NCBI GenBank assembly: GCA_011033025.1
Contig: WFMF01000401.1
Span: 1-64,000 of the forward strand
Source: Beroe forskalii
Lineage: Eukaryota > Ctenophora > Nuda > Beroida > Beroidae
Direction: 5' to 3'
DNA: 64,000 nucleotides
Shown piece by piece: positions 2,630-58,462 of the stretch; the stretch's first letter is position 1, and every line of letters starts with the position of its first letter. A model generated the notes under the pieces. It saw nothing but the letters and a program-made list of their open reading frames with translations, was not told where the DNA came from and did no database searches. Both the position numbers and the translations under genes were made by a program.

Positions 2630-2871
2630 GGACTATTTCAATTTTCCAGTATATTTTTTCCATTTTCACCAATTTTAACCATTTTTTCGTAAAATTTCAT
2701 AAATTTACGAAGAAATATCAATAATTTTTAGCTAATTTTTTGTTAATTTTCCGTTAATTTTCCGTTAATTTTCCGTTAATTTTCCGTTAATTTATTTTTT
2801 AAAGAAAGGTATTATTTTCACATTTTCTAAAGGAGTAATCGGTGTTTTTTGCGAAAATTGGTTACAAATAG

Positions 2872-2925
2872 TTAGCGATGCTGATGATTGGTGTAACAGC
2901 CATGAAACAAATTGTTCGTCACTAA
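2872..2925 (+). ncRNA. Hammerhead ribozyme, pseudo-LTR of unit 2
   Basis: Same 54-nt sequence as at 213-266, with CTGATGA at 2881-2887 and GAAA at 2904-2907. Predicted cleavage is after 2916, which is 2,659 nt downstream of the cleavage site in unit 1. A read-through transcript of the array could therefore be cut into unit-length RNAs. Confidence 0.75.
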
Positions 2926-3205
2926 AGTGTTGTATCATTGTGTATAACTCGCTCCTTATCCCATAAGTCGAGCACTCTCAAGTGGATTGTATCCCCTGAA
3001 CTTGTATTATAACGCTCCCTTACTCGTAACGGTTGAGCACTTTCATACAACTTCTACTTCACTCCTGCAACACACTACTTGTCACCGATGGAAGCATTTG
3101 ACCTCGGTTACTCCCCAAAGAATGTCCCAATACCTGCCAAAGACAGCTACCTAAAGACCCTTATTGCCAAAACAGAGCATTTTCTGAAGCGTTTGCGTTT
3201 GGAAA

Positions 3206-4975: not shown

Positions 4976-5057
4976 TCATTCATGTCTGTCTGAGGTAAAT
5001 TTCCCGTTATCCAGCCGTTCAATTTTTAAATTTTTCACAATTTTACGAATTTTTCAG

Positions 5058-5420
5058 GGACTATTTCAATTTTCCAGTATATTTTTTCCATTTTCACCAA
5101 TTTTAACCATTTTTTCGTAAAATTTCATAAATTTACGACGAAATATCAATAATTTTTAGCTAATTTTTCGTTAATTTTCCGTTAATTTTCCGTTAATTTA
5201 TTTATTTTTAAAGAAAGGTATTATTTTCACATTTTCTAAAGGAGTAATCGGTGTTTTTTGCGAAAATTGGTTACAAATAGTTAGCGATGCTGATGATTGG
5301 TGTAACAGCCATGAAACAAATTGTTCGTCACTAAAGTGTTGTATCATTGTGTATAACTCGCTCCTTATCCCATAAGTCGAGCACTCTCAAGTGGATTGTA
5401 TCCCCTGAACTTGTATTATA
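5058..5420 (+). mobile_element. Penelope-like element, terminal partial unit (pseudo-LTR only)
   Basis: Repeats the first about 360 bp of the units, including the ribozyme, then stops at CTTGTATTA and runs into a (TA)n tract at 5418-5440. Units 1 and 2 continue past that point with ACGCTCCCTTACTCG. This is the downstream pseudo-LTR that closes the array. Confidence 0.85.
5281..5334 (+). ncRNA. Hammerhead ribozyme, terminal pseudo-LTR
   Basis: Third identical 54-nt copy; core CTGATGA at 5290-5296 and GAAA at 5313-5316, predicted cleavage after 5325. Its spacing from the second copy (2,409 nt) equals that unit's length less slippage-repeat differences. Confidence 0.75.
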
Positions 5421-31240: not shown

Positions 31241-32139
31241 AAGGTGGCAGAATGGCTGCACGACAACTGCTCCCCCCAGGAAAGGTCACGTGACATGTCA
31301 CATGACCTGAAAACGTGTCACATGACCTGAAATATCACGTGGTGTGTCACGTGTTTACTAAAATGTCAATAATTGGATGTGAATCATGGGCGACAACTGC
31401 TCCCCTTATTATCAAAACATTTTTCGGCAACAAGCGCCAACCATTTCTGGCAACTTTATCAATCAAATCCAGAATAATCTGAATTTAAACTATAATTTTA
31501 GATCCAATTGAAGATAAAATAAATTCAGTGTAAACCAATAAATAACCATGAACCACAAAGCAAATTTTGGTTACCGTCGGGCATCAACATAAAAAATCCT
31601 TTCACGTTTTATAGTTATACATGGTACTCGTGCTTGGTGCTTGGTGTGTATGGATAAACTTGGCCTGATGATCTCCAGCCTACAGCATTCTGGTTCCCCT
31701 TTACACGCAAATGTTAAGGGAGAGCTCTCTCTTCGTCATTGGAATCGGAGAAGGGCTAATTGCCTTTACACGATTGGATACGAGGATCTGATACATGCAT
31801 ACTTATTGACCTGTGGTGACCCTCGGATTGGAAACAAGACCGGCATTTTGCCGATGAAAAGCAATCAGACTCAGCCGAACTAGTTCATGCCGATACTTTG
31901 TAATAAATTTTGGTGTAATGAGGATTAATGAGTCAATTCTCAACACTAAATCGAAAAAATCATCGCTGTCTATTGTTATGAAAACAATCGGCGGAGAATT
32001 TAAGAAATATAAGTCAATTCTGTCTGGCGAGAGGTGTAGGAACGTAGGTATAAAAAGTCATTCTATGAACTTACGATCAGCCCACTATTGACTATTGATA
32101 TTGAGTTATTGCTGCTGAGTTTACAAGATTACAATTGTA

Positions 32140-32515
32140 TGATTCCTCCTCCTGTCCCTCCTACCATCCCTTGTCCTGCCACCCCTCCTACCATCCCTTG
32201 TCCTGCCACCCCTCCTCCTATCCCTTGTCCTGCCACCCCTCCTCCTATCCCTTGTCCTGCTACCCCTCCTCCTATCCCTTGTCCTGCTATCCCTCCTCCT
32301 ATCCCTTGTCCTGCTACCCCTCCTACCATCCCTTGTCCTGCCACCCCTCCTACCATCCCTTGTCCTGCTATCCCTCCTCCTATCCCTTGTCCTGCTATCC
32401 CTCCTCCTATCCCTTGTCCTGCTACCCCTCCTACCATCCCTTGTCCTGCCACCCCTCCTACCATCCCTTGTCCTGCTACCCCTCCTCCTATCCCTTGTCC
32501 TGCTACCCCTGCTAA
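32140..32515 (+). repeat. 27-bp minisatellite fused to the MULE transposase frame
   Basis: About fourteen copies of a 27-bp unit (CCTATCCCTTGTCCTGCTA core) read as PPPIPCPAT in one frame and as G-rich repeats on the other strand. It ends at 32515, where the MULE core begins. Because both strands stay open, the long frames over it are period artefacts. Confidence 0.9.
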
Positions 32516-33188
32516 TGGTAGACTTTGAAAAAGCTGCGATGAATGCATTCAGAAATGTTTTTGAGAACTTTACTTTAATCAACTGTTTTTTCCATTTATG
32601 TCAGAGTGTGCAGAAGAATATATTTAAAAAGTTTAAAATTTTATATTTTAAAGACAAAGATTTTGCTAGAGCAAGTAGGCTTGTTGCATTTTTAGCATTT
32701 GTGCCGATGGGCAAAGTAGATGATGCTTTCGAAGAACTTTCCATATACATTGCCAGCAAGTATCCTACTTTACTTAGCGTTGTTAACTACTGTATTTCGA
32801 GATAACATACTTAGGACTTTCCAGTATTGACAATGATAAGAGGAGTGAGCCTCGATTCCCAATGGTGTTTTGGAATCACTATAACACCATCATGGTTGAC
32901 TTTGATTACCCTCGGACTAGTAACATGGTGGAAGGCTTCCACCGTGGGTTTAGGACGAGGGTGAACAGAGCCAAGCCCTCTGTTCAGGAGTACTTCCGTG
33001 GCATTTCTGAACAACAAGTCGCAACAGACTTCCATCTAGACAGATTGGCTGTGGGGATTTCACCTGCAAAGAAGCGAAAAACCCGCAACCAAGAACTGTA
33101 TGAAATCTGTTGCGCTTTTGATAAGTATGAATGTATTCTGGAATATTTATTTGAAGTAGCTAAGTATTTTGGACATGACATTGAGTAA
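32515..33188 (+). pseudogene. MULE transposase, C-terminal part, frameshifted
   Basis: Two frames continue one protein. 32515-32805 begins MVDFEKAAMNAF, the family's second catalytic-Asp motif, followed by FFHLCQSVQKNI. 32862-33188 has FWNHY and the RTSNMVEGFHRGF motif that carries the catalytic Glu and Trp/His-type signature of MULE transposases. A frameshift near 32795 separates them: the other frame reads LYFEITYLGL straight on to RFPMVFWNHY. The N-terminal part with the first Asp and any zinc finger is missing or replaced by the minisatellite. It is not expected to be active. Confidence 0.8.
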
Positions 33189-36092: not shown

Positions 36093-37144
36093 TCATGATG
36101 AGTCAGTGATCTTAAAGTTTACTTCTGGGAACCATTCCTCCTCACTTCCAATATTTTGTCTTCTATTTACGAGACATTTAATTTTGCTTTTCAGAAAGCT
36201 AATTCCAACTGAGAAATCTTTAATGTCACTAGCTTCAGGCAAGGTACGGAAGGTGTTCCACATAATACTAGCCCTAAAGATAAACGAGTCAACTTGTATG
36301 GGCGCTATAATCAGGGTCGGTTTCCGGCGTGATATTTTAAAGTGTGGAAGGAGAGCTATTGGTGTATGATATTTAAGGATAATGCTGATACTGAGTAGAA
36401 CATGATAATTATACAGATTGTGGACAGTTAGAATATTCTGTTCATTAAATAATGGCTTGGTATGTTCTTTTTCAAAGAAGTCGGTCCCAAGAGTTTGAAG
36501 TTCAATAGACCTAGTCCTGGCAGCTGTTCGGTGCTTTTCTAGGTAAGCCTCACTATCACCAAACATTATGCGGATGCAGTGTTTTTGAGCAGTAAATATG
36601 GGTTTCATTTTATTATGTGAAACACCTCCCATACTGTTATACCATAGCTAAGGTGACTTTCAAAAAGAGTATGATAGAGACTTTTGTACAGAGTTTTAGG
36701 GATGTACTTTTTAATGCGATTCAGTTGGCCAGTACAGCATCTCAGTTTTTTGGCAAGAGCAGATATATGCGGTGTCCACAAAAGTTCGTCATCGATTGTT
36801 ACACCAAGGAATTTGATTTCAGCAACCTTCTTTATTTCAAAGTCATTTATTCTAACAGGCGGGCATTGCAATTGGTCTACACTATTTGTGTTTGATTTTG
36901 GTTTGAAATGCATATAGCAAGATTTTTTCATATTTATGTGAAGCTTGTTTGCATGTAACATGTAAGAAGAGACTAAAGTTAAAAGAAAGTTTGCTTTCCT
37001 GATAGCTTCCTCCTTACTATTACCTACGATAAAGATATTTGTATCATCAGCAAATAAAATGAACTTTCCTTGATCAGAACAGTTTGAAAGGTCATTAACA
37101 TATATTAAGAACAGTAATGGTCCAAGGACACTACCCTGAGGCAT
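36093..37144 (-). pseudogene. Truncated non-LTR retrotransposon reverse transcriptase (LINE fragment)
   Basis: Two minus-strand frames join. 37144-36605 opens at MPQGSVLGPLLF (RT motif B) and carries FADDTNIF (motif C, YXDD equivalent) and KLHINMKKSCYM. 36632-36093 continues with the C-terminal region (GGVSHNKMKPIFTAQKHCIR). A single frameshift lies near 36620, where one frame reads LSYGITVW and the other resumes at GGVSHN. Motif A and everything upstream is absent, so this is a 5'-truncated insertion. The RT looks CR1/Jockey-like and is distinct from the pair at 51-58 kb. Confidence 0.85.
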
Positions 37145-37322
37145 AAATTCATATAAATTTATGAACTCTATTATAAAATGGAACCCATGTTACAGAATCG
37201 AAATAAATCATTGGAATTCTTCAAATAATTTTGATATTATAATTGGGCACTGAATCATAAAAGGGCAAAAGCTTTCAAGTATAAATGATTAAATAAGCAG
37301 TATTATACCGATTGCCAATCCT

Positions 37323-42078: not shown

Positions 42079-45000
42079 CTAAAATTCGAAATCAATAGAC
42101 CTCAATAGTTTCCTCCAAAACTCATCAGAAAATGGTTGGTCCATATGTCTATTTTTAGGAAATGACTCACAAGAATATAAATGAGAAATGTTAGTGTTAT
42201 AAGACTGATCATTATCACTAAATAATGTCATCTTTTCACGAGCAAAACTATCAACCTTCATTAAATGGCCTTCTGTTGTGAAGATAAAGTCACTGCGCTT
42301 ATTTACAGGATTAGTAACATCAAATAAAAGATACAAATATTTACATGTCTCACTAAGGAAGAAGCTTTCCATTCTGTCCTCTTGTTTTTTGCTGATAACA
42401 CTGTTCAGAGTTGCGTAGCCACACTTTGCTTTATTGTACAATTCTATGCTTTCATAAATCTTTTCCCCAACAAATAAATAGAATGGATGGTGTGTTGCCT
42501 GGTATAGGAGATATGTAGCTTCTGCAAATTCAGGGCGTAAAGGATATAAAGCATATTCACACTTTCTTAGATTCCAGTTAAACCTTTCTGGAAGAGCATC
42601 ATATTTGAGCCATAATCCATAAAAAAGGGCATGGTGCAAAACAGCATCATGTATATCTCCATGTAAAATCTGGACTCCAATGAAAGCAGCAGATAAACTA
42701 TCAATCCAGTGGTTTTGTATTTTACCAGTGTTCAGGCTAAAAAATGGGTGGACTTAACTCCGCGGCGGACCCGCTGCCGACCCAGTGGACCCGCTGCGGG
42801 TCCGCCGCGGACTCCACTAAAGTCCACCATAAAAATTTTTTGGTGGACCCGCAGCGGACTTTTTAAAACTCCGCCGCTGGAGTAGTGGATCCGCTGCGGG
42901 TCCGCTCGGGCTCCCGCCAGCGCACTGGTGGACAGTCCGCCAGAAAAGTCCACCAAAAAAGTCCACCAGGGAAAAAAGTCCGCCGCGGATTGGAGTCCAC
43001 CGCGGAGTTTTTTGTCCACAGGTGGACTCCGCAGGTGGACTCCACCAGCGGACTTTGGTCCACCTGCGGAGTCCACAGGTGGAGTCCACCAGCGGAGTAC
43101 ACAAGTGAAGTCCACCTGCGGAGTCCACAGGTGGAGTCCACCGGCGGAGTCGGGGAGTCCACCGGCGGAGCTCACTGGTGCACTAGGTATGTATGTTAAT
43201 GTATGTTTTGGAAATGATGAGGTACTGATGAGGTATAAGTATGTATGTAGGTTTGCAAAATGATGAGCTCATCACTTACGGGCGAAATTTTGACATCAAC
43301 CACTCCTTGTAAAATAAGTGCATTCGCTTATTTGGTGAGGATTTGGAAATGGAAAGGTGGTGGAAAGGATGGCAAATGACCACATTGCAAAATCGCCGAC
43401 TCGGCGCCGATTGGCGCCGGTCCGGCGCTGATCGGCGCCGATCAGCGCCGGCTAGGCGCCGATGGGAAATCGGCGGGGAACGGACAATTCATCTCACGAC
43501 ATTTCATCTCACGACACTTTACCTCGCAATATGTCAGCTCTACGCAAAGGTTAGGGTTAGGGTTAGGGTTAGGGTTAGTGTTTGGGTTAGGGTCAGGGTT
43601 AGGGTTTGGGTAAGGGTTATGGTTAGGGTCAGGACACGGAGATGAAGTGTCCTGAGATGAAATGTCGTGAGATGAGATGTCGCCAACCCAAATCGGCAAC
43701 TTTTCATCGGCGGTCGTCGGCGCTGATCAGCGCCGGCCAGCCCCCGATCGGTGCCGACAGCGCCAATCTGCCGCCGATTAAAAACACCTGTATAACGGAA
43801 GCTGTCTGGTGCATTTTATTTCAGATTTTCCCATGATTTTCCCATCGGCGTCGATCGGCGCTGATCAGCCGCAGCGCCGACGAAAAATAATTAATTTTTG
43901 GCAGATGTTGACTTTGCAATCGGCGCCGATCAGCGCTGATCAGCGCCGATTCACCGCCGATCAGCGCTGATCAGCGCCGATCGGAAATTTTAAAATTCTC
44001 ATCGGCGGTCGATCGGCGCTGATCAGCGCTGATCGGCGCCGATTGCAAAGTCAACATCTGCCTTAATTTTTCGATTCTTAATGCAGTTTTCATATCGGCG
44101 CTGATCAGCACCGATCAGCGCCGACGACCGCCGATGAAAAGTTGCCGATTTCCCATCGGCGCCTAGCCGGCGCTGATTGGCGCCGAGTCGGCGATTTTGC
44201 AATGTGGTCATTTGCCGAAAGGATGAGAACCAAATGAGAACGGGGATTTTGAAGGGTGATAAATGACTCCAAATGCCAAAACTTGTTCAGGGTTGTAGAG
44301 GGCATTGAGGAGATAACTTTTGCAAAGTTTTTGCGACTTTCTGACTTTGGACTTTGGGGGTTGCGGGGCCACGCCCATTTTGTCACAAAAATTTAATATT
44401 GAGTAAAATGACTCAAAATCAGTTGGAACGTGTTTATATAATAGTCCCAAGGAGTGTCCATACAAATTTTTCGCCCGGTGGGCAATTCATAACAGCCACA
44501 ATGGGCCTTTCCTGCTTTCCATAGTAAATTTTCATAGTGAAAAGAATGAGAACCAAATGAGAACAGGGAGAACTCAATTTACTTGCGTTATAATCAGTAA
44601 GAACACATATTATTAAAGGTGTTTGGTCATGAAAAATTCACTTTCCTTAATTATGATCTAGTACATAAAAATATGTGCATTACTATTTTGTTAGTATAAC
44701 GGTGAAATTCCGGTGTTTCTAGCATGTCTGTGTCACTTGATATCCGGGATTATATAAAGTAGCGCATGACGTAATCAAGGTAAGTGATACGACCGCAACA
44801 CCCCTGCAGCTCTGCAGGAGCCCGTATCCTGTGTAATGTATAAGCATAATATCACTATTGTGTGTTTGGGTGCTTGTTTCGTTTTACCGTATCTGACTTA
44901 TTAAATAACGTTTAATTTTGAGAATTAAACTGCAAGTTTTATTCATGGGAGATAGTTCTTTTCTAAAGTTTGAATATTGTAGGTACGAATGCAAGTAAAA

Positions 45001-48000
45001 CTTTGAAAAAAGGTCTGTTTTAAGGGCATTATCTGTGTCGGCTATTTTTGGAGGATTTTCGTATCTGCCACAGTTATCAGTGATCACAAAGTGATCAGTA
45101 ATCAATCCTTGGAATAAAAGTGTCATCTCTACCTTCCTATAACTCCTTACCCTGACCCCTAAAGGCCTAACTTTGGCAAAACGGCTTAATTCCAACGTGG
45201 TGTATGGTTTAATCTTTCACTGGTCACCCAGACAGATCGGAAATCACTCTTGGAGTTAGACCAGTTAATGATAAATCTGATGGTCTTCTCTGATAACTTG
45301 TTAACATTTCACTGGTCAGCCATAAACCAGACTGATGAGAACACTCTCGACCAGTCCAACAATCACCATCTGAAGGCGCGCCCTGACACGGGACACTAAT
45401 TCATTGACCAATCTGATGCCAGGTACTGATCACTCATCACTCTAAAACCATGTCACTGGTTGCCCTGTCTCCAGTTCATTGCTGACCCTGACACCAATTC
45501 ATTGATCATCCTGACACCAATTCACTGATCAATGATGAACCTGACACGAATTCTCTGATCAACCTGGCACCAATTTACTGATTACCCTGAAACCAATTTA
45601 TTGCTCACCCTGACACCAATTCACTGATCAGCCTGACACCAATTCACTGATCACCCCGACACCAGTTCACTGCGCACAGTGACACCAATTCATTACTCAC
45701 CCTGACCCCAATTCACTCAATCTGCTTACGCTGACACCAATTCATCAATTCACTGATCACTCCGATACCTGAATACTGATCATACCGACAACAAATTAAC
45801 TGACCACTGTTCGCTCTGACACCAATTCGCTTAACACTGATACCAGGATACTGATCGCTATGAAACCAGATAATCTAACACTTTGACACTAGTTGCCAAT
45901 AAATCTACTTTTCATTGACGGATCTCTGGATACCATTCTACCAAGAACCTTCAAACCAGGCAGCTGTACAGTGTACACTGTACAGTACGGGAACAGTTGC
46001 TTTATAAGTTTGAAAAATGCTTGTTTATTTAAGTAAAGATTATGATATATACGAAGTAAATGACCTCGATAATACGAGTAAATAATAATTAATGCAACAT
46101 AATAATAATGTGAAATAATTGGGTGAAATTAGCTGGGCGGCAAAACAAACAAAAACACGGAATAACGATGTTATAATACTGCAGATGTAGTGTTTATTCT
46201 GTGCTGTGGATATGTATAGAATATCGCGGTGACCGATCCTACGTCATCAGCAGAAATCTTAACATGCATATATCTTCCGCTATATAGGGCGTAGCGCTAC
46301 CGGAATTTCACCGTGTCGTTTGTTATGATAAGGTGCATCTAATTACGTCGATTAACTTGTACCTTAAAATTGATGACCAAACACCTTTAAGATAAAAGCT
46401 AGAAGAGGACTCTTTAATTCAAAATTAACAACATCTAAGTTAGATAATTGAACTTGAATTGCAGTAGTGACGTCACTCCAGCCCTTCATATTGAATGAGT
46501 GACGTAACAGAAATCTTTAAATGATGAGATGAGGTTGGGATATTTATATATCTTTTCTAAATGATGGGGTAGTGATGAGGTTGTATGTATGTATGTACGT
46601 TCAAAAAAGGCCGATTTTGATGAGCTCATTTCTGGATGGCCCCCTAGGACTCCTGGGTAGTCCCGTAGGACTCCTGGGTACTCATCGAATTCATGGGGTA
46701 CTCCCGTAGGACTCCCAGGGTACTACGTCGGACTCCCGGGGCACACCCGTGGTACTCCCGTAGGACTCCTGGGGTACTCCCGTAGGACTCCCAGGGTACT
46801 CACTGTCGGACTCCCGGGGCACACCTGTGGTACTCCCGTAGGACTCCTGGGGTACTCTCGCAGTACTCCCCAGGAGTCTCCAGCAGTATTATTCGCTCGT
46901 ATGACCCTAGTTCTAATTGTATTGTTAGCCACCCAGTCAGAAGAAATAGACGGGCAACGTCCGTCCATTTTATTCTTAAACGCATAAATGGTTTTAAACG
47001 CACAAGCTCATTACTCCCGAGTTGGTTTTTCAAATATCGACCGAATCTGAGACAGCTTTGTACACATGGCACTCCTTTCCAAAACCAAAAATAAAAGCAT
47101 AACTTATAATATTCATAATGGCGGATTCCGCCAGTGGAGTCTACTGGTGGACTCCACCAATGAACTCCGCCAGTGGAGTCAATCTGCTGGTGGAGTCCAC
47201 CAGTGGAGTCCGCCAGTGGACTCCAAGTGGTGGACTCAACTCCGCCAGTGGACTCCGCCAGTGGAGTCCACTGACTCCGCGGCGGACTAACCTCCACAAT
47301 TATTTTACTCCACGGTGGACTTTTTTGGTGGACTTTTTCGGTGGACTGTCCACCAGTGCGCGGCGGAGCCCGAGCGGACCTGCAGCGGATCCACTACTCC
47401 GCGGCGGAGTTTCGAAAAGTCCGCTGCGGGTCCACCAAAGTCCACCAAAAAAAATTTATGGTGGACTTTAGTGGAGTCCGTGGCGGACCCGCTGCGGGTC
47501 CACCGGGTCCGCAGCGGGTCCGCCGCGGAGTTGAGTCCACCCATTTTTTAGCCAGTGTTCATATTGACATTGGCAAAATAAAATGGATTATCAACATCTA
47601 AATTAGTATCAGTATCAAAATAACGCTTGTTGTATTTACTAATACTTCTGTAAAAGCTATCAAATCTAGACAGATCTTGTTCATTTCCAAATAAAATATA
47701 CGACTTAAGAAGGTATTCATAATATGAATCAATCCCAGCACCAATGCCACTCATTGGATCATCCCAGGCATTAATTTTTGTATTATACACATTCCCTATC
47801 AAACCAGTGTTTTTATCTCTAAGTTCCCAGAGTTTATCCATGGCACGTTCAGCCACAATTTCAAATGTTGGATCACCTATAAGCCTACCAAGCATTTTGA
47901 ATTCCAAAATTAATGTTCCTATTCCTGCAGTACAGGTGGATTCACTGAAAAGCTCTGATTTCCCATTACGAAGATGGACCCTTGGTGAAGGAATTCCTAA

Positions 48001-48822
48001 TGCTGTATCAAAAGCTGGGAGCAATCTTACACCCAAATCATGGGCCAAAGATAGTAGCTCATTGTCATAATTTTCGATTGTTGTATTAAAAATTTCACTC
48101 CATTCAGAGATTAACAAATGGCTACTTAATAATGAACCAAGCATACGTATAGTACTTTCAAAAACCTGGACAGTACTTTCTTGATCAAATGAAACAGCAT
48201 TTATGACATGATCAACTGATTTCCTGAAATACTCTATGTCTCCCATAATAGCTAGTGTGTCAAGTGAATCCACTAGTCCCAGGGAAAAATTTCCCAGAAC
48301 ATCATTGATGTTTATATTATCTGGATTATTGTAGTCAGGACCCCTACCATTACAATCATGAGGATTGAGTTCATCAAGTGGGAATGCATGTTTCATATAG
48401 TTATCAAACCCAAAATAGAACATTTCTTTCACCTGAAAATGATCAATTGCAGCATGTGCAGTTATGGATATTGCCAGAAATAAAACCTTTGCTCAAATTC
48501 ACATTGAGATGCTTAAACTTATAGTTAAGATCACTGTACTTCCAGCCAAGTGGCAGGATTAAGTAATGGCATATAATGAAAAGGGATGCCTGCATTAAAA
48601 TCTAAATGTAGGAAAACTGTTGCATTTTAATTTCCTTAAACACCAAAAGATAATTTCCACATCAAATATGACCAAAGTACAGAATGAAGTGATAATAATG
48701 GCAGATTATATGCTTGAAATTTAAATAAACCCTACCTTCATCATCAGGTTTTGGCTTCTGTCATTAGGGAACTGCAGAGTAAAACACATCAGCAGAAGGT
48801 GGAGAAAGACCCAGTAATACAT
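42079..48822 (-). CDS. EDEM1: EDEM family ER mannosidase-like protein (EDEM1-like), coding exon split by a transposon
   Basis: EDEM proteins (glycoside hydrolase family 47) act in the ER lumen, trimming or recognising mannose on misfolded glycoproteins and sending them to degradation. Exon 1 (48822-48736) encodes a signal peptide ([18 protein letters not shown]). A GTAGGG..TTTTCAG intron follows. Exon 2 starts at 48432 with [20 protein letters not shown] and carries [20 protein letters not shown] and [11 protein letters not shown]. At 47553 the frame meets a DNA transposon whose first bases create a stop (GGC TAA). Coding resumes, in the same frame, after the transposon and its duplicated 8 bp at 42726 ([11 protein letters not shown]), with [44 protein letters not shown] and FTTEGHL (calcium-site Thr of GH47). 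Without the insertion the protein is 537 residues. As assembled it is interrupted; the insertion may be one allele. Confidence 0.93.
43371..44216. mobile_element. 846-bp TIR element nested in the larger transposon
   Basis: Ends are GGCAAATGACCACATTGCAA and its complement. The 8-bp GAAAGGAT lies outside both (43363-43370, 44217-44224). Like its host it has a GGC start, 8-bp duplication and GC-rich self-complementary subterminal repeats (GGCGCCGATCAGCGC type), so it may share the host's transposase. Inside is a second inverted repeat (CATCTCACGACATTTCATCT near 43490-43510 against 43650-43680) around a telomere-like tract. No transposase. Confidence 0.9.
43548..43628. repeat. Interstitial telomere-like tract (TTAGGG)n, degenerate
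   Basis: Four perfect GGTTAG units followed by variants (GTTTGG, GGTCAG, GGTAAG, GGTTAT). It sits at the centre of the 846-bp nested element, between its inner inverted arms. Confidence 0.9.
44617..46386. mobile_element. 1,770-bp TTAA-flanked DNA element nested in the larger transposon
   Basis: Ends read AGGTGTTTGGTCAT inward on both sides, directly bordered by TTAA (44613-44616, 46387-46390), the target of piggyBac and Kolobok groups. Further in, the arms share CGGTGAAATTCCGGT and GATGACGTA/CATGACGTA segments but are otherwise diverged. No transposase. Its interior holds a degenerate repeat of about 21-24 bp, CTGACACCAATTCACTGATC, at about 45400-45870 and a perfect 22-bp palindrome at 45964-45985. 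Confidence 0.85.
45400..45870. repeat. Degenerate tandem repeat (CTGACACCAATTCACTGATC-like)
   Basis: About 18-20 diverged copies of a 20-25-bp unit with the core CTGACACCAATTCA, inside the TTAA-flanked element. Confidence 0.85.
46625..46880. repeat. Minisatellite (CTCCCGTAGGACTCC type)
   Basis: Short units GTAGGACTCCTGGGGTACTC and variants, arranged in a higher-order repeat of about 76 bp seen from about 46707 and again from about 46783. Confidence 0.85.
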
Positions 48823-51159: not shown

Positions 51160-52940
51160 TTTATATGAATGAAGCTTCTATGTTGTGCTGAGGGAAAACA
51201 CTCAGTCAATCTTTAAGACTGTTAACGAGGTTGCCCACTACAGAAATAACTATACTATATCAAAACATATTCCTGAAAAGAATGGTTAAATTAAATAATG
51301 CACTCTCAGAACAGTACATACTGAAAATAATAAGTGGTATTTAATTTAGTTTAGAATAAAATAAGGGCTATTTAACTTATTTACAGAAATAAAGCTGCAT
51401 TTTAATGACTTACCAAGGTCAGGCTGCATTTTAGAGACATTCCCAGGTCTAAATTCAATAATTTAAACATAGAAGTGGAAAAGTAATAACCTTTAAAATT
51501 TAGAAAAGTTCCTCAGCACAATCCAAATTAAAATGTTAAAAAGGTCCATCAACATTACAATATCTTGGCAGTATAAATAATTTAAAACATATTGTTGTAA
51601 TTTGACGGATTTTTATCATTTTGTAATCCAACAGGACTAAGCAACATTCAAGTAGGTAAACATAGCAAAAGTAAACTGTTATAAAGTTATAAGGTATATT
51701 GATACACTTTGGAGTTTTATAATTGCTGATAATGAGTTATTATTATATCATATTTCACTTAAGCTTGTAGATATGATCAAAAGCATTATTCACAACATAA
51801 GTGGGGTCACTAGTTACTGATTCCAATAGACGTTTTTTGTAGCTTAAGCCAAATAATTTAGGATCACTGATATTTCTAAGTTCTGTTGGAACATTATTCC
51901 ATGCCTTTGCACCTAAGTAATAAAAATTCTTAAGACTGTTTGATTTTGGAGTATACAGATTGCAGTGTGCTCCATCCCTACTCCCCCCAGAGATATAACT
52001 AAACTTATTAATAAAGTTAGAGGGACTTTCTCCATTTAATATTTTATACATATAAGATGATAAGTGAACTTGGCGTCTCAGGTGTAGAGGGAGCCATTTC
52101 ATGTCCTGATACACTATTATACTACTTTCTGTTTTTTCAACACCTAGAGCTATTTTTGCTATTTTCTTATATAGAATATCTAATTCATGAAGTTTTGTCT
52201 TTGAAGCTCTGCCATATATGGTATCGAGATAATCAAAATGTGGCAACATAAGCGAGTTGGCAAACATTTTTCTATATTTCACAGGCATTAAGCTACTTCC
52301 CCTATACATAGCACCAATTCGTTTCTGAATTTTTTTCTTAATAAAGTCGATATGAAGATCGAATTTAAGTTTATTATCTACTATTAACCCTAGATATTTG
52401 AAACTCTTACATTCTTTTATGGCATAGTTATCACCTAGTTTTATCTTAACGGAAAAATTGGCTTTGTCAAAAATAAGAATTTTCGTTTTTTCTATGTTAA
52501 GCGATAACTTGTTTACACATAACCACTTAATAATAGTTAGCATTTCTATCCTAATGCTCAAATATGTCTTGCGACAAATATTATCAAATAAGAGTGCTCC
52601 ATCATCCGCAAATAAGTATGGATGGGACAAATTACAAGCATTGACCAGATCATTTATGTAGATACTAAAAAGGAGTGGCCCTAATAGACTGCCTTGTGGA
52701 ACCCCAAATTTAACTGGAAGGATGCCACTTACTCTACCCAAAAATTTCGTTGCCTGTTGACGGTTTGTCAAGTAGTGTTTGATCCACAGGATAACAGTTC
52801 CATCTACTCCATAAAACTTAAGCTTATCAATGAGTAAGTTATGATCTACTGTGTCAAATGCTTTCTTGATATCAAGAAAGATTAGTGCTGGGGTGTTTCC
52901 CTTTGACTTGTTATCAAATAATTTGTCAAACATATCAAGA
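51160..52940 (-). mobile_element. CR1/L2-type LINE, copy A, 5'-truncated
   Basis: Contains the RT half of ORF2 (52933-51755) and a 3' UTR of about 590 bp (51160-51754). The 3' UTR is shared with copy B: AGCTTCT..GTGCTGAGGGAAA, AAGACTGTTAAC and GCCAAGGTCAGGCTGCATTT occur in the same order at both loci. Its 5' end abuts the 3' tail of copy B (AAATTC)n at about 52941-52965, so either copy B inserted at its end or copy A was truncated on insertion. Confidence 0.85.
51755..52933 (-). CDS. LINE ORF2 fragment, reverse transcriptase, copy A
   Basis: 392 codons, intact within the fragment. RT motif A is FLDIKKAFDTVDH, motif B GVPQGSLLGPLLF and motif C LFADDGALLF, followed by the CR1/Jockey-like thumb and C-terminal region (YLGLIVDNKLKFDLHIDF, RGSSLMPVKYRKMF, DMKWLPLHLRRQVHLS, YYLGAKAWNNVP). 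Endonuclease and RT fingers are absent. About 80% or more identical by eye to the 53.6-54.7 kb copy. The frame start is a truncation, not a natural start. Confidence 0.93.
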   Translation of the reverse strand: MFDKLFDNKSKGNTPALIFLDIKKAFDTVDHNLLIDKLKFYGVDGTVILWIKHYLTNRQQATKFLGRVSGILPVKFGVPQGSLLGPLLFSIYINDLVNACNLSHPYLFADDGALLFDNICRKTYLSIRIEMLTIIKWLCVNKLSLNIEKTKILIFDKANFSVKIKLGDNYAIKECKSFKYLGLIVDNKLKFDLHIDFIKKKIQKRIGAMYRGSSLMPVKYRKMFANSLMLPHFDYLDTIYGRASKTKLHELDILYKKIAKIALGVEKTESSIIVYQDMKWLPLHLRRQVHLSSYMYKILNGESPSNFINKFSYISGGSRDGAHCNLYTPKSNSLKNFYYLGAKAWNNVPTELRNISDPKLFGLSYKKRLLESVTSDPTYVVNNAFDHIYKLK

Positions 52941-53585
52941 GCTGAATTTGAATTTGAATTTGAAAATAATTTTTACAGCACAATTACAGTATATATTTTT
53001 CCCATTAATATATTTAAAGAAGCTTCTTGGATGTGCTGAGGGAAAGCACTTAGCCAATCATAAAGACTGTTAACAAGGCTACCTGCTAAGAATATACTCA
53101 TAATATATTAATTCATATTCACAAAAATTTTCATTGCTGGAAATTTTTATGTCAAAAAAACTTAAAATTACACTCTTGAAACAGTGCATACTAAAAACTA
53201 AAAAGAGTTTAAAACGTATTTACAAGCATAAAGCTGCAGATTAGTGACTTGCCAAGGTCAGGCTGCATTTTAATGACAATCCCAGGTCAAAACAAAATAA
53301 TTTAAGTTAAATTTGATATAAAAGTATAAATAAAAGAAAGAAAATTCCCTCAGTCACACAATATCTGCTAACAAGAAAAAAATCTGTTTACATGAATACT
53401 GTAAAAATGAAAAACGGCAAATATCATTATATATAACAAGTATACAAATATTGTGAAACTAGGGTGAGAATAAATAAATTAATTTTTTTGTTCACTGCAA
53501 CATCTCGTGGGGTCGGTCTAAAAAATTTGTGATATCTACCTAATTAAGTTCCAAGGTAATTAAGTTCTAAGCACACTTTAAGAGT

Positions 53586-54713
53586 CTACAAGGTTGGTTT
53601 ATAAATGTGGTCAAATGCATTGTTCACTATATAGTTTGGATTACTGGTCACTGAGTCTAAAAGACAATTCTTATAATTCTTTCCAAATTCTTTTGGATCA
53701 GTTATCTTTCTTAGTTCAGGTGGAACACTATTCCATGCCTTTGCACCTAGGTAATAAAAGTTCTTAAGATTACTTGACTTGGGGGTATATAGATTACATT
53801 GTGCTCCATCCCTGCTTCCTCCAGATATATAGTTGAATTTACTTATGAAGTTTGATGGGCTATGCCCATTGAGTACTTTGAACATATAGGATGATAAGTG
53901 AACCTGGCGTCTAAGATGAAGGGGTAGCCACTTCATGTCTTTATAAACAGTTATGCTGCTTTCTGTTTTTTCTACACCTAGGGCTATTTTAGCTATTTTC
54001 TTATAAAGTATGTCTAATTCTTGAAGCTTGGACTTAGGAGCTCTTCCATAGATAGTATCAAGGTAATCAAAGTGAGGCAACATAAGAGAGTTAGCAAACA
54101 TTTTTCTATATTTTACTGGCATCAAACTGCTTCCTCTATACATGGCTCCTATTCTTTTTTGGATCTTCTTTTTGATGTAATCTATGTGAATATCAAATTT
54201 GAGTTGATTATCTACCATTAAGCCCAGATATTTGAAAGATTTGCATTCTTTTATGAAGTAATCTTTGCCCACTTGGATCTTTACAGAGAAGTTAGCCTTA
54301 TCAAATATTAGGATTTTTGTCTTATCAATATTTAGCGATAACTTATTGACATTAAGCCATTTAATAATTGTCAACATTTCTATCTTTATGCTTAGATATG
54401 TGGTACGACAGATATTGTCAAATAGTAATGCTCCATCATCAGCAAATAAGTATGGGTGAGATAAATTACAAGCATTAATAACAAGATCGTTGATATAGAT
54501 ACTAAAGAGAAGAGGCCCCAATAGACTACCTTGTGGAACTCCAAAGGTTATTGAAAGGAAACCACTCTCTAAACCTAAGAATTTTGTTGCCTGCTTACGG
54601 TTGGTTAAGTAGTTCTTTATCCAAAGAATAACAGTTCCATCAACACCATAGAACTTAAGCTTTTTGATTAATATGTTATGATCTACAGTGTCAAAAGCTT
54701 TCTTTATGTCCAA
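53586..54713 (-). CDS. LINE ORF2, reverse transcriptase core and C-terminus, copy B
   Basis: 375 codons opening at MDIKKAFDTVDHN (motif A region), then GVPQGSLLGPLLF, LFADDGALLF and the same C-terminal landmarks as copy A. Upstream on the minus strand the frame still shows SKGNTPALIF before the foreign segment starts at about 54765, confirming this was continuous with the fingers region at 55381-54968. Confidence 0.93.
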   Translation of the reverse strand: MDIKKAFDTVDHNILIKKLKFYGVDGTVILWIKNYLTNRKQATKFLGLESGFLSITFGVPQGSLLGPLLFSIYINDLVINACNLSHPYLFADDGALLFDNICRTTYLSIKIEMLTIIKWLNVNKLSLNIDKTKILIFDKANFSVKIQVGKDYFIKECKSFKYLGLMVDNQLKFDIHIDYIKKKIQKRIGAMYRGSSLMPVKYRKMFANSLMLPHFDYLDTIYGRAPKSKLQELDILYKKIAKIALGVEKTESSITVYKDMKWLPLHLRRQVHLSSYMFKVLNGHSPSNFISKFNYISGGSRDGAQCNLYTPKSSNLKNFYYLGAKAWNSVPPELRKITDPKEFGKNYKNCLLDSVTSNPNYIVNNAFDHIYKPTL

Positions 54714-54769
54714 AAATATGAGTGCTGGAGTATTTCCTTTTGACTTATAATCAAATATTCAAATAAGCT

Positions 54770-54967
54770 TGCCTGCAGATTAGGTCAGCTATCAGCCGAA
54801 GGTGGCTATGTACCACCTCCCTTCGTCTAGTGGATCACAGGGTGGTCTGACCCAGCCAGACTGTGTAAATCATATTCCCATCGATTGGTATTTAATTGTT
54901 TACCTGTTATATTTGCTGTTGTTGCTGTTTTGTTGATGTTGTTTTGGGCAGAGCATGGGTTCTTTGA
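54770..54967 (-). other. Segment of about 200 bp of unknown origin within LINE ORF2
   Basis: It separates NHQYGFRKNYSTT from the SKGNTPALIF part of RT, which are adjacent in related LINEs. It contains a small hairpin (GGTGGTACATAGCCACC on the minus strand) and CAACAGCAAATATAACAGG. SINE-like size, but no A or B box convinces. Confidence 0.5.
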
Positions 54968-55460
54968 CTATCCTTTGACGTAGGTTGTTGAATAGTTCTT
55001 CCTAAATCCATATTGATGGTTACTTAAGTAGGTTGTTGAATAGTTCTTCCTAAATCCATATTGATGGTTACTTAAAAGCTTATTACTCTCGAAATAGTCT
55101 GATAACTGCCCATTTGCACAAAATTCTATACATTTTGATACAATAGGTAAAATAGAGATTGGTCTATAGTCGTTTGGGTCATTCTTGTCTCCTGTTTTGA
55201 AGATGGGTGAGACAACTGCTAATTTACAAGATTGCGGGAACTGACCAGTTGACAAGCTAAGGTTAACTATATGTGTTAAACTGTGTCCTATGATAGGCAA
55301 AATAGATTTGATAACTCTAAGTGGTAGCTGGTCAGTTATGGCCTTATTTGATGATAATGAGGAGACATACGAATAAATCATATCATAAGAAACTTCAGAA
55401 AATGATGTGAAAGTAGAATCAGTAACATTTGTCAGAAAGTCCCTATGATTTATATATTGT
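54968..55460 (-). CDS. LINE ORF2, RT fingers region, copy B
   Basis: Reads GQFPQSCKLAVVSPIFKTGD, NDYRPISILPIVSKCIE and NHQYGFRKNYSTT, motifs 0-2 of non-LTR RTs. The last motif is present twice because of a 48-bp in-frame duplication. The frame can be followed back from the annotated ATG (55381) to about 55460 (IVQQYINHRDFLTNVTDS), where it meets the endonuclease frame after a 1-nt shift. Confidence 0.88.
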
Positions 55461-56772
55461 TGTACGATGGCACTGCTCCATGTAGCTTAGGACCTACTTC
55501 ACAGAAATGTTTATTCATATCTTCAGCAGTTAAAATATTCTCATCAACTTTAGGCTGAGTATTTGTTTTAGATGGCATATTTGCAGCAAATTTTATTGAC
55601 TTCCATATACCTTTTAGGTCATTTTTAGCACTTTTTGACTTAAGATCATTGACAAGATTTTCACGTTTATTATTCTTAGTTATCTTGTTAGTCAGATTGC
55701 GTTGTTTCCTATATTCATCCCATGCTACATGTGAATTTATACAACTGTTACAGACATTGCAATGTCCACATTTATCTATCTTTTTGAGCTTTGCTTTAAA
55801 TTTTCTGTGGAGTCTCTTTTTCTCTCTAATTGCATTTAAACTTTCTAGAGATGGTTTATAAATAAAATTTTGGTGTTTTTTAATTGTCTTTAGGGGGAAG
55901 AAATGGTCATGATATTTGGTTAGATGGGTCTCTAAGATTGACACAGCATCATCGACTTGGTTACATTCAAAAAGTGGCTGGAGATTCAAATTTGCTAGGT
56001 ACTTCTGAAAGGCCTTAATGTTATTGTTACTATAGTCGTGTAGAGATAGCTTTTCAAACTTAGGAGGTTTCTCTACTTTGAACTGAAGTTCACATTTAAT
56101 AGAGAAATGGTCACCTACCTGCTCAGGGAGTACTGATGAAGTTTTGAAATCTGTATAACAATTCGTTATAATAACATCAATGGTACTGTATGTAAACTTG
56201 TTACCTCTCTTAGCTACTCTAGTGTAGTTTTGGATGGTTTGTACCATATTAAAAGACTTGAGTGCTGAGTCTAGTTTCCTATAATCTGAATCATTAATTT
56301 TATTCTGGTCTACATTTATGTCTCCTATCCAGATTACTTTCTTGCCTTTAAGTTTATTCATGCACTCTGTAAAGTAATCAATAAACTCATCTAACTTACA
56401 ATAACCACTAGATCGATAGAAGCCACATATGTAGAATTGGCTGCTCCTTATCTTGATCCATTTTGCTTCAATTGTTGGTACATTAGTATTTACTTTAACT
56501 TTATCATCATAGGCAACAGTGTTACTTATAAGTAAACCACACCCCCCTCTGGACCCAGTACCCCTGTCCTGACGTAAAAATGTATAATTAGGAGGAATGT
56601 TAAGTGTATTGGTGGCAATAGTTTCATTGAGATTTGTTTCATTGAGAGATAATATATCCATTTTATACTTATTTATCATATCATTAATTTGAGTTGATTT
56701 TGCTATGCCTATTAGCCCACCTTGAATGTTGCAGTGTCCTAAAGTAAGGTCATGGGAGTTATCAACGGTCAT
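55450..56772 (-). CDS. LINE ORF2, AP-type endonuclease domain and Cys-rich linker
   Basis: N-terminal part of ORF2, 440 codons from an ATG. It cuts target DNA to prime reverse transcription. Endonuclease/exonuclease/phosphatase motifs: LGHCNIQGG (N15), LSLNETNLNE (E45), IWIGDINVDQN (D151, N153), STIDVIITN (D199) and VGDHFSI (D221, H222). After the nuclease comes a basic linker with CGHCNVCNSC (C335, C338, C341, C344), a CX2CX2CX2C cluster, then WDEYRKQRNLTNKITK. It ends by frameshift near 55465 (KLHGAVPSYNNI), just before RT motif 0. Confidence 0.92.
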   Translation of the reverse strand: MTVDNSHDLTLGHCNIQGGLIGIAKSTQINDMINKYKMDILSLNETNLNETIATNTLNIPPNYTFLRQDRGTGSRGGCGLLISNTVAYDDKVKVNTNVPTIEAKWIKIRSSQFYICGFYRSSGYCKLDEFIDYFTECMNKLKGKKVIWIGDINVDQNKINDSDYRKLDSALKSFNMVQTIQNYTRVAKRGNKFTYSTIDVIITNCYTDFKTSSVLPEQVGDHFSIKCELQFKVEKPPKFEKLSLHDYSNNNIKAFQKYLANLNLQPLFECNQVDDAVSILETHLTKYHDHFFPLKTIKKHQNFIYKPSLESLNAIREKKRLHRKFKAKLKKIDKCGHCNVCNSCINSHVAWDEYRKQRNLTNKITKNNKRENLVNDLKSKSAKNDLKGIWKSIKFAANMPSKTNTQPKVDENILTAEDMNKHFCEVGPKLHGAVPSYNNI

Positions 56773-56914
56773 AATAACACAATAAAAACAATTAAATACT
56801 ATGGTACTTGTTGGAATGATTAAATATATTTCATGGCTCAGTTTTCACACTGATGCCATTAAAATACCCCTTACAGATGATGAGCATGATATTTGAGATG
56901 TTTAGCAAGTCTGA

Positions 56915-58462
56915 TCAAACCATCTCGAGAGAGATGAACATTATCATCTCCATTCTTACTGAAGAAAACGTTTTTCCTAACTCCATCCTTGAACTAAACA
57001 AATTACGATTTAGCTCAGTGCCAATCATGTTTACATAAGTTAAATTCTGGCTCAGGTAGAAAATAAACTTATTTAGCTCATTAATCACTGAGTTTCTACA
57101 AAAACTTTCCCTTGGCAAAATGTTCACTACATTGATACTACAAAGCTGTGCATGATTATGAAGATATTCAATGAGATTATTCATGTCCATTTTGGCTTCT
57201 TCTAGAAGTTTATTGGAACCTGAATAGCCATCTATAAAATTACTATAGTTATTTTTCTGTATACCAAGTATCTGATCAACATTGTTTGTTCCACAAAGTA
57301 AGATAATTCTCTTTATAGAACAAGGATTGATTTCTAGAAATTTATTGTCCTGCTTGAGCTTATTTAAAATGTTCTTGGTGGTTGCCCCCGGATAGAAAAA
57401 TACCCTGGCTTTCTGATCATGAGAGGACATTTTGTTCTCATCTATCCCCCTGAACATACTTGAACTTATGTAGATGGTGTAATTATCATGGGCAGAAGAG
57501 TCAGTGATATTGTTCTCACCATCCTGGGGAGATGGGTGAGTGCTGGGGATCACGCCAGGGGTGGGTTCAAAAGGGGGGTTCAGAAGACGGAAGGTGATAC
57601 TGATCCGTGGGAGGTCACTTGCCCCAGGGAGAATACAGTGCTCAAAAACATGCTGTGAAGCTTTGCTCATTAGAAAAATGTCTCCATGGTTAACATTGAC
57701 CTCATGGGATATGTTTTGAGGATGTGTCAAGGTTGACCTGAATTTTGCAACTCTTGATTCCCCTAAAGATATGGTGGCAATTTCAGAGTGGGTGACTATT
57801 TCAGCTTCATTGTCACTATGAAAACCAATACTATCAGATGCATTACAGTACTTAGTTATCAGGATACTGTTGTACTGAAATCCAGGAAGTAACTGATGAA
57901 GGTGATCTAAAATTTTGCTCAGATAACTAGTGGGAGGGGGCAGAGGGCATGGTGTGTGGGTTGTGTGTCCATAAGAGTATGGATACTGACCATAGTAGGC
58001 AGTGGACCGATTGGCATGCGATCTTGTGAATGAAGTTTCTATGTCCAATAAATTGAGATCAAAATTCTGAAATGGATGATCTGGCAGGAGATTATAAGGA
58101 AGTTCATCATGTTCAGTGATATGATTAAGTATGCCCTGAGATTCACTTGCCTGGCAGAAAAGGTTGAACAAAGCATCCGATGATGTTGCTGGGGATTCAG
58201 CTAGATCACCATCAGTGCTAGTGAATGTGGAGGTGGTTATCATTGGGTCAGTTTGAACTGCAGATGATGTGTTAGATGGTGGGGTTGCTGGCAGAGACTC
58301 TACATTAGTCTGACAAGGATCTGTTTGGGAAGTTTGATCAGCTTTTTCACGAAATATAAGTTCAATAAGGTCATCAATTTTCTTATTTAACATAGCAACT
58401 TCTGATTTGAGTTGTTTACATTGTTCTGTGAGAGATTCACAGTTAGGGCATTGGGATTCCAT
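56915..58462 (-). CDS. LINE ORF1: coiled-coil, AlkB-like dioxygenase and SGNH hydrolase fusion
   Basis: 515 codons as read. Residues 1-40: CPNC motif and a short coiled coil (LTEQCKQLKSEVAMLNKKID). 41-110: Ser/Thr-rich linker. About 155-295: AlkB-type Fe(II)/2-oxoglutarate dioxygenase; the ALKBH2/3-like string ITKYCNASDSIGFHSDNE carries HxD (H215, D217), QHVFEHCIL the distal His (H275), and RISITFR the RxxxxxR pair (R286, R292), so all iron and cosubstrate ligands are present. About 328-480: SGNH hydrolase/esterase, as in CR1 ORF1: SSSMFRGI (nucleophile block), FFYPGAT and LLCGTNNVD. A 1-nt loss in an A-run near 56975 shifts the end. The other frame reads GDDNVHLSRDGL (catalytic D..H block) to a stop at 56871. 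AlkB enzymes remove methyl lesions from DNA or RNA; a role on element RNA or cDNA is inference. Confidence 0.92.
   Translation of the reverse strand: MESQCPNCESLTEQCKQLKSEVAMLNKKIDDLIELIFREKADQTSQTDPCQTNVESLPATPPSNTSSAVQTDPMITTSTFTSTDGDLAESPATSSDALFNLFCQASESQGILNHITEHDELPYNLLPDHPFQNFDLNLLDIETSFTRSHANRSTAYYGQYPYSYGHTTHTPCPLPPPTSYLSKILDHLHQLLPGFQYNSILITKYCNASDSIGFHSDNEAEIVTHSEIATISLGESRVAKFRSTLTHPQNISHEVNVNHGDIFLMSKASQHVFEHCILPGASDLPRISITFRLLNPPFEPTPGVIPSTHPSPQDGENNITDSSAHDNYTIYISSSMFRGIDENKMSSHDQKARVFFYPGATTKNILNKLKQDNKFLEINPCSIKRIILLCGTNNVDQILGIQKNNYSNFIDGYSGSNKLLEEAKMDMNNLIEYLHNHAQLCSINVVNILPRESFCRNSVINELNKFIFYLSQNLTYVNMIGTELNRNLFSSRMELGKTFSSVRMEMIMFISLEMV

What the first reader, a model, noticed from the sequence alone, without database searches (positions are those of the whole stretch)
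56915..58462. A LINE ORF1 protein carrying a complete AlkB-type dioxygenase domain fused to an SGNH hydrolase
The ORF1 of copy B keeps every AlkB ligand in order: H215xD217, H275 and R286xxxxxR292. It also has the ALKBH2/3-like context IGxHxDxE and RISITFR, followed by the SGNH esterase known from CR1 ORF1 proteins. AlkB domains are known in cellular repair enzymes and in some plant RNA viruses, where they remove methyl lesions. As part of a non-LTR retrotransposon's ORF1 it suggests the element repairs or demethylates its own RNA or cDNA, or counters host methylation. I do not know of a characterised example and cannot exclude that one has been reported.
Basis: partly seen in the sequence, partly recalled or inferred. 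Interest (0 to 1): 0.88.

Follow-up and report, generated by a model that had tools for sequence, protein, structure and literature searches.

The report
LINE retrotransposon carrying an AlkB dioxygenase
The first protein of a LINE-type jumping gene in a eukaryotic genome contains an AlkB dioxygenase domain with its iron-binding residues and key arginines in place, next to an SGNH hydrolase domain, and more than a hundred related proteins keep the pair, so this lineage likely uses it to strip methyl damage from its own RNA or cDNA during copying.

The parts
56915..58462 (-). ORF1 of the LINE copy, ATG to first in-frame stop, 515 aa
58343..58450 (-). N-terminal CxxC and predicted coiled-coil helix (residues 5-40)
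   Evidence: AlphaFold2 helix 6-40, block pLDDT 74-92; CxxC in the first 110 aa of 127 of 170 relatives of 450 aa or more
57575..58111 (-). AlkB-type 2OG-Fe(II) dioxygenase domain (residues 118-296)
57812..57820 (-). iron ligands H215xD217
   Evidence: 111 of 111 rows; coordinates
57638..57640 (-). iron ligand H275
   Evidence: 111 of 111 rows; coordinates
57587..57607 (-). 2OG-binding R286 and second arginine R292 (RISITFR)
   Evidence: R286 111 of 111, R292 110 of 111; coordinates
57971..58009 (-). nucleotide-recognition lid: R152, Y162xY164, aligned to ALKBH2 R110, Y122xF124
   Evidence: 111, 111 and 110 of 111 rows; alignment; numbering of ALKBH2 checked; roles in ALKBH2 from passages of PMC12295762 and PMC10377887
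56871..57481 (-). SGNH/GDSL hydrolase domain; S335, G359 and N393 in frame, DNVHL block in another frame after a frameshift near 56990
55453..56772 (-). ORF2 start (ATG 56772) with APE-type endonuclease
   Evidence: PF03372 E=1e-7; ATG
54971..55486 (-). ORF2 fragment with the start of the reverse transcriptase, in another frame
   Evidence: PF00078 E=6.4e-5, below Pfam's curated cut-off; frame
53589..54758 (-). ORF2 reverse transcriptase of the same copy (copy B), in a third frame
   Evidence: PF00078 E=7e-22; frame
51758..52972 (-). reverse transcriptase of a related, 5'-truncated copy (copy A), lying directly 3' of copy B
   Evidence: PF00078 E=3.6e-23; 86.8% aa and 78.3% nt identity to copy B over 386 codons

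Best explanation
This is the ORF1 protein of a LINE retrotransposon that carries an AlkB dioxygenase domain nearest the ALKBH2/3 type between a predicted coiled-coil helix and an SGNH hydrolase domain, and it likely removes N1-methyladenine and N3-methylcytosine lesions from the element's own RNA or first-strand cDNA so that target-primed reverse transcription would not be blocked. The coiled coil would assemble ORF1 proteins on the RNA. The AlkB domain would supply the contact with nucleic acid that esterase-type ORF1 proteins otherwise lack, and would oxidise methyl groups using Fe(II) and 2-oxoglutarate. The SGNH domain would serve membrane or lipid steps, as proposed for ZfL2-1. Shown here: domains, their order, active-site residues, predicted folds, conservation across related proteins. 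Inferred: substrate, activity and benefit to the element.
Against: No activity was measured. ALKBH2 N159, a 2OG contact, is T203 here and N in only 16 of 111 rows; Y161, another, is F in 19 of 111. The window copy is dead (frameshift in ORF1, ORF2 in three frames). AlkB-ORF1 followed by EN-RT was seen only in this window; relatives are known as proteins without context. Homologues were found by similarity to the whole ORF1, so part of the AlkB conservation is by selection; the SGNH-only search is the partial control. Nothing here separates RNA from DNA as substrate. An acidic residue near the base is not unique to m1A/m3C enzymes: PMC3985658 names equivalents in FTO and ALKBH5.
Confidence: 0.5

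Rival explanations
1. The AlkB domain is an RNA/DNA-binding module of the RNP; catalysis is incidental.
For: Esterase-type ORF1 proteins were reported to lack other structural RNA-binding domains (PMC3905857); the lid positions that contact nucleic acid in ALKBH2 are conserved here.
Against: The iron and 2OG ligands H215, D217, H275 and R286 are in 111 of 111 rows; a pure binding role would not need them. 14 of 179 AlkB columns are invariant; that these four are all among them has chance 2.4e-5 if columns were independent draws. The fifth named residue, R292, misses by one row.
Confidence: 0.15
2. The domain erases m6A (or other host-written marks) from element or host RNA, as an anti-silencing device.
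For: Precedent: an ALKBH5-like ORF of an orchid Gypsy element demethylates m6A in vitro (PMC9289625).
Confidence: 0.17
3. The domain repairs alkylated DNA at the integration site or in host DNA.
For: The best structural match is the dsDNA enzyme ALKBH2.
Against: The best sequence match is ALKBH3, described as single-strand selective; an ORF1 protein is expected on the element RNA (general knowledge).
Confidence: 0.13
4. A chance capture in one insertion, or an ORF that only looks like AlkB.
For: The window copy is degenerate; ORF1 occurs once in the window.
Against: 169 of 170 relatives of 450 aa or more keep the AlkB motif, 169 of 170 have it ahead of the SGNH serine block, 160 of 170 have all four motifs; the LINE-type rows form one clade, SH-aLRT 98.
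Confidence: 0.01
5. Most relatives are domesticated host genes rather than transposon ORF1s.
For: Relatives were seen only as proteins; their DNA context was not available.
Against: The window member sits directly ahead of EN and RT ORFs; Mnemiopsis holds several divergent members, three of them 36% identical to one another (P0117, P0159, P0167).
Confidence: 0.04

Closest known systems
Type IV (esterase) ORF1 of CR1, L2, RTEX and Penelope-like elements, e.g. zebrafish ZfL2-1
   Same: Coiled coil followed by an SGNH hydrolase with the Ser, Gly, Asn, Asp, His set; ORF1 ahead of EN-RT (PMC3905857 and PMC4120745, passages read)
   Different: The words AlkB, dioxygenase and 2OG do not occur in PMC4120745 (448 elements), nor AlkB in PMC3905857. 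Here an AlkB domain lies between coil and SGNH domain.
ALKBH2 and ALKBH3 (human repair dioxygenases)
   Same: Predicted fold, iron ligands, the two arginines, base-pocket positions
   Different: 26-27% identity over the aligned part; part of a retrotransposon ORF1; ALKBH2 N159 replaced by T203
Orchid Ty3/Gypsy element with an ALKBH5-like ORF (PMC9289625)
   Same: A retrotransposon that captured an AlkB-family enzyme; active on m6A RNA in vitro
   Different: LTR element of plants, separate ORF, ALKBH5-like rather than ALKBH2/3-like, recent by its title (abstract, discussion and passages read)
AlkB domains in plant RNA virus replicases (Alphaflexiviridae, Betaflexiviridae, Closteroviridae)
   Same: AlkB domain kept by an RNA-copying genetic element, proposed to repair its RNA (as told in PMC9289625); structural matches to plant-virus replicases
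   Different: RNA viruses with replicase polyproteins, no reverse transcription; an SGNH fusion there was not looked for
Insect LINEs with a viral SF1 helicase in ORF1 or ORF2 (PMC5563155)
   Same: A LINE that acquired an extra RNA-handling enzyme (passages)
   Different: Helicase, not dioxygenase

Membership tests
AlkB-type 2OG-Fe(II) dioxygenase, ALKBH2/3-like | HxD...H iron triad | tested here: met
   H215, D217, H275; 111 of 111 rows
AlkB-type 2OG-Fe(II) dioxygenase, ALKBH2/3-like | 2OG arginine and second arginine, R(5)R | tested here: met
   R286 111 of 111, R292 110 of 111
AlkB-type 2OG-Fe(II) dioxygenase, ALKBH2/3-like | double-stranded beta helix with lid | tested here: met
AlkB-type 2OG-Fe(II) dioxygenase, ALKBH2/3-like | YxY/F motif and acidic residue at the E175 position | tested here: met
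   Y162xY164, E219; the motif is described in PMC3985658
AlkB-type 2OG-Fe(II) dioxygenase, ALKBH2/3-like | Asn at the ALKBH2 N159 position (2OG contact) | tested here: not met
   T203 in the window; N in 16 of 111 rows. I treat it as a secondary feature: the domain assignment rests on the iron residues, the arginines, the profile score and the predicted fold, so I say 'AlkB-type, nearest ALKBH2/3', not 'an ALKBH2 orthologue'.
AlkB-type 2OG-Fe(II) dioxygenase, ALKBH2/3-like | demethylase activity on m1A/m3C | not testable with these tools
   needs protein
Type IV (SGNH esterase) LINE ORF1 | catalytic Ser, oxyanion Gly and Asn | tested here: met
   S335 and G359 111 of 111, N393 110 of 111
Type IV (SGNH esterase) LINE ORF1 | catalytic Asp-His (DxxH) in frame | tested here: inconclusive
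   Out of frame in the window copy; D in 107 and H in 107 of 111 rows
Type IV (SGNH esterase) LINE ORF1 | SGNH fold | tested here: met
Type IV (SGNH esterase) LINE ORF1 | N-terminal coiled coil, no RRM | tested here: met
   Helix 6-40 predicted, coiled coil itself inferred; no RRM in the Pfam scan at E<=1
Non-LTR retrotransposon (LINE) | ORF1 followed by APE endonuclease and RT on one strand | tested here: met
   PF03372 and PF00078 downstream, minus strand
Non-LTR retrotransposon (LINE) | 5'-truncated sibling copies | tested here: met
   Copy A holds RT but no EN or ORF1
CR1/L2/Jockey clade membership | RT phylogeny | not tested
   No reference set of LINE RTs at hand; PDB sequence hits are weak (3e-5 to 6e-3) and to R2, L1, retron/group II intron-type and other RTs
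Orchid AlkB-Gypsy lineage | LTR retrotransposon with a separate ALKBH5-like ORF | tested here: not met
   AlkB is inside ORF1 of an APE-EN/RT element and is nearer ALKBH2/3

The most novel reading that the evidence does not exclude
One ancient LINE lineage captured an ALKBH2/3-type enzyme once, fused it to its esterase ORF1, and has kept it as an on-board eraser that proofreads the element's template RNA and cDNA by direct reversal of base methylation: the first non-LTR retrotransposon with its own nucleic-acid repair enzyme, and an answer to how esterase-type ORF1 proteins handle nucleic acid.
Probability: 0.42. Interest if true: 0.92.

Novelty: new variant of a known kind. Interest (0 to 1): 0.82.

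Why it matters
LINE reverse transcription is expected to stall at m1A and m3C (established chemistry, recalled). A LINE that brings its own demethylase would make base methylation of transposon RNA a testable point of conflict between element and host, and would supply the nucleic-acid-handling domain whose absence in esterase ORF1 proteins was raised as an open question in 2013 (PMC3905857). It would add non-LTR retrotransposons to the genetic parasites that carry AlkB, beside plant RNA viruses and an orchid LTR element (PMC9289625) and the giant viruses and phage named.

Tried and rejected
Chance match or one-off capture: rejected by conservation across relatives and a single clade. Loss of AlkB in relatives: the SGNH-only search (query P0001 residues 305-520) found 162 proteins and listed 120; 112 of these 120 carry PF13532. 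Of the 8 without it, 7 begin inside the AlkB domain (truncated ORFs), and 1 (P0167, a Mnemiopsis gene model) has the N-terminus and SGNH but no AlkB; gene-model error or real loss is open.

Scans of viral contigs with the family alignment, the RT and the AlkB domain, and of genome contigs with the alignment and the RT, confirmed no relative. These collections hold viruses, bacteria and archaea, so this is expected for a eukaryotic LINE, and the peptide patterns were few. The start of Mnemiopsis P0120 showed no similarity to the window's endonuclease ORF, so it is no evidence for ORF2 linkage. A shared 3' UTR motif does not fold better than shuffles. A dN/dS ratio for the two RT copies cannot be given: pS is 0.777, saturated, so the script's ratio and its bootstrap mean nothing; only dN 0.077 and codon-position differences 40/21/190 are usable. 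The AlkB-domain-alone protein search gave 15 hits, 10 of them LINE-like by eye, so few outgroups. A chance figure for six residues is not used, because two of them were picked after seeing that they are invariant.

Literature: nine searches (PMC open licences only) listed no AlkB in a non-LTR element, as judged from titles and starts of abstracts. Four further papers that hold both words were opened for passages; their AlkB mentions are host ALKBH1 or ALKBH5. The other papers of those lists were not opened, and one search listed 15 of 385. Repbase entries, preprints and subscription papers were not searched.

Full report
What is there. The finding's interval is an ORF on the minus strand, ATG at 58462 and stop at 56915, 515 aa. 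It encodes, in order, an N-terminal CxxC and a predicted long helix (residues 6-40), a low-confidence linker, an AlkB domain (118-296), a short linker and an SGNH domain from 328. Downstream on the same strand follow ORF2 pieces: an APE-type endonuclease from ATG 56772 (PF03372, E=1e-7) and a reverse transcriptase (PF00078, E=7e-22). Directly 3' of this copy lies a related copy that holds only the RT. The two RTs are 86.8% identical in protein and differ at 190 third, 40 first and 21 second codon positions over 386 codons; dN is 0.077 and synonymous sites are saturated. I infer that they stem from long-diverged lineages whose RT stayed under purifying selection.

State of this copy. It is not intact. 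ORF1 is frameshifted near residue 491 (about 56990), so the DNVHL block of the SGNH domain stands in another frame, whose reading ends at 56871. The three ORF2 pieces lie in three different frames. The AlkB domain is uninterrupted.

Active site. Among 111 rows (the window plus 110 of the 120 listed homologues; 10 shorter ones left out), H215, D217, H275 and R286 are invariant, R292 and E219 are kept in 110 each. The ALKBH2 alignment printed, numbered from R110 (the letters fit at all 15 positions checked), maps R152, Y162, Y164, D217 and E219 to R110, Y122, F124, D173 and E175. These contact the damaged base or the DNA in ALKBH2 (PMC12295762 and PMC10377887, passages read) and are kept in 111, 111, 110, 111 and 110 rows. 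Median pairwise identity is 35% over the whole alignment and 40% in the AlkB region. Only 14 of 179 AlkB columns are invariant; that the four ligands are all among them has chance 2.4e-5 if columns were independent draws. Against: N159 of ALKBH2, a 2OG contact, is T203 here and N in only 16 of 111 rows, and Y205 (ALKBH2 Y161, another) is F in 19.

Distribution. The ORF1 search found 140 proteins at E<=1e-3 and listed 120, all 120 with PF13532 in the precomputed column. 119 of the 120 carry HxD...H...R(5)R; P0037 does not. Over all 204 proteins listed in three searches, 170 have 450 aa or more; 169 of these keep the AlkB motif, 169 have it ahead of the SGNH serine block, 160 keep all four motifs. 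Because the query itself holds AlkB, part of this is by selection. As a partial control, a search scored on the SGNH part alone found 162 and listed 120, 112 with PF13532; 7 of the 8 others begin inside the AlkB domain and one Mnemiopsis gene model lacks it. The only host named in these lists is the ctenophore Mnemiopsis leidyi (P0117, P0120, P0159, P0167); P0117, P0159 and P0167 are 36% identical to one another. The window is eukaryotic by its genes (prenyltransferase, GH47 mannosidase, Alg14) but I do not know its host. A quick tree of 128 AlkB domains puts 121 LINE-type rows on one side of a branch with SH-aLRT 98 against 7 stand-alone AlkBs. The stand-alone set is human ALKBH2 and ALKBH3 and five short proteins classed by eye; two short rows, P0127 and P0132, were counted as LINE-type by eye. 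With so few outgroups a single capture is suggested, not proven.

Mechanism. Esterase-type ORF1 proteins in RepBase were found to lack RRM or any other structural RNA-binding domain (PMC3905857). In this lineage an AlkB domain nearest ALKBH2/3 is present, with iron site and base pocket conserved. The simplest reading is an enzyme acting on the nucleic acid that ORF1 handles: the element RNA in the RNP, or the cDNA during target-primed reverse transcription, where m1A and m3C would stop the polymerase (recalled chemistry). The SGNH domain would serve membrane steps as proposed for ZfL2-1. Substrate, activity and benefit are inferred.

Comparison and novelty. The nearest system is the Type IV ORF1 of CR1/L2-like elements; the words AlkB, dioxygenase and 2OG are absent from the survey of 448 Jockey-superfamily elements (PMC4120745). 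The nearest captured AlkB is the ALKBH5-like ORF of an orchid Gypsy element with m6A demethylase activity in vitro (PMC9289625), and AlkB domains in plant RNA viruses (told there; structural matches). Nine searches of the open-licence library listed no AlkB in a non-LTR element, judged from titles and abstract starts; four more papers opened for passages speak of host ALKBH1 or ALKBH5. I call it a new variant of a known kind.

What is missing. The genome search did not complete (12 tries), so copies in the host genome, ORF2 linkage of relatives, and dN/dS of ORF1 were not tested. The clade of the RT was not tested.

Noticed in passing
1-5420: Near-identical tandem units of about 2.43 kb with long ORFs (1236-2093, 3188-4975) that give no Pfam hit; they look Penelope-like from memory, untested.
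   Followed up: partly
36608-37189 (-): Fragment of another LINE RT, about 30% identical to the RTs of copies A and B.
   Followed up: partly
42082-42753 and 47551-48492 (-): Two parts of what looks like one GH47 mannosidase gene (profile positions 272-455 and 1-252), with 114-nt inverted repeats, 94% complementary, at 42735-42848 and 47440-47553, at or near an end of each part.
   Followed up: no
32093-32595: 27-nt minisatellite that is open in two plus-strand frames and one minus-strand frame, giving long but probably meaningless ORFs.
   Followed up: no
54780-54968: By eye, ORF2 of copy B is interrupted here by a stretch that does not look like RT, next to a short tandem duplication near 55020-55090; no tRNA or Rfam match anywhere in the window.
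   Followed up: partly
about 53045 and 51190 (-): A motif GTGYTTTCCCTCAGCAC is shared by the 3' UTRs of both copies; its predicted fold is no better than shuffles.
   Followed up: yes
proteins P0171, P0177-P0183, P0185, P0187, P0191: Eleven 552-aa relatives, 98.6-99.8% identical, listed apart with different longest contigs: either recent copies of an active element or the same locus in several assemblies; odd for a database said to be clustered at 90%.
   Followed up: partly
P0167 (Mnemiopsis leidyi): The one relative seen with the N-terminus and SGNH domain but no AlkB domain: gene-model error or true loss.
   Followed up: no
residue 145 of ORF1 (58028-58030, -): An aromatic residue (F 74, Y 34 of 111) seven positions before R152, near where ALKBH2 has its intercalating F102 (eight before R110); not shown to be equivalent.
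   Followed up: no
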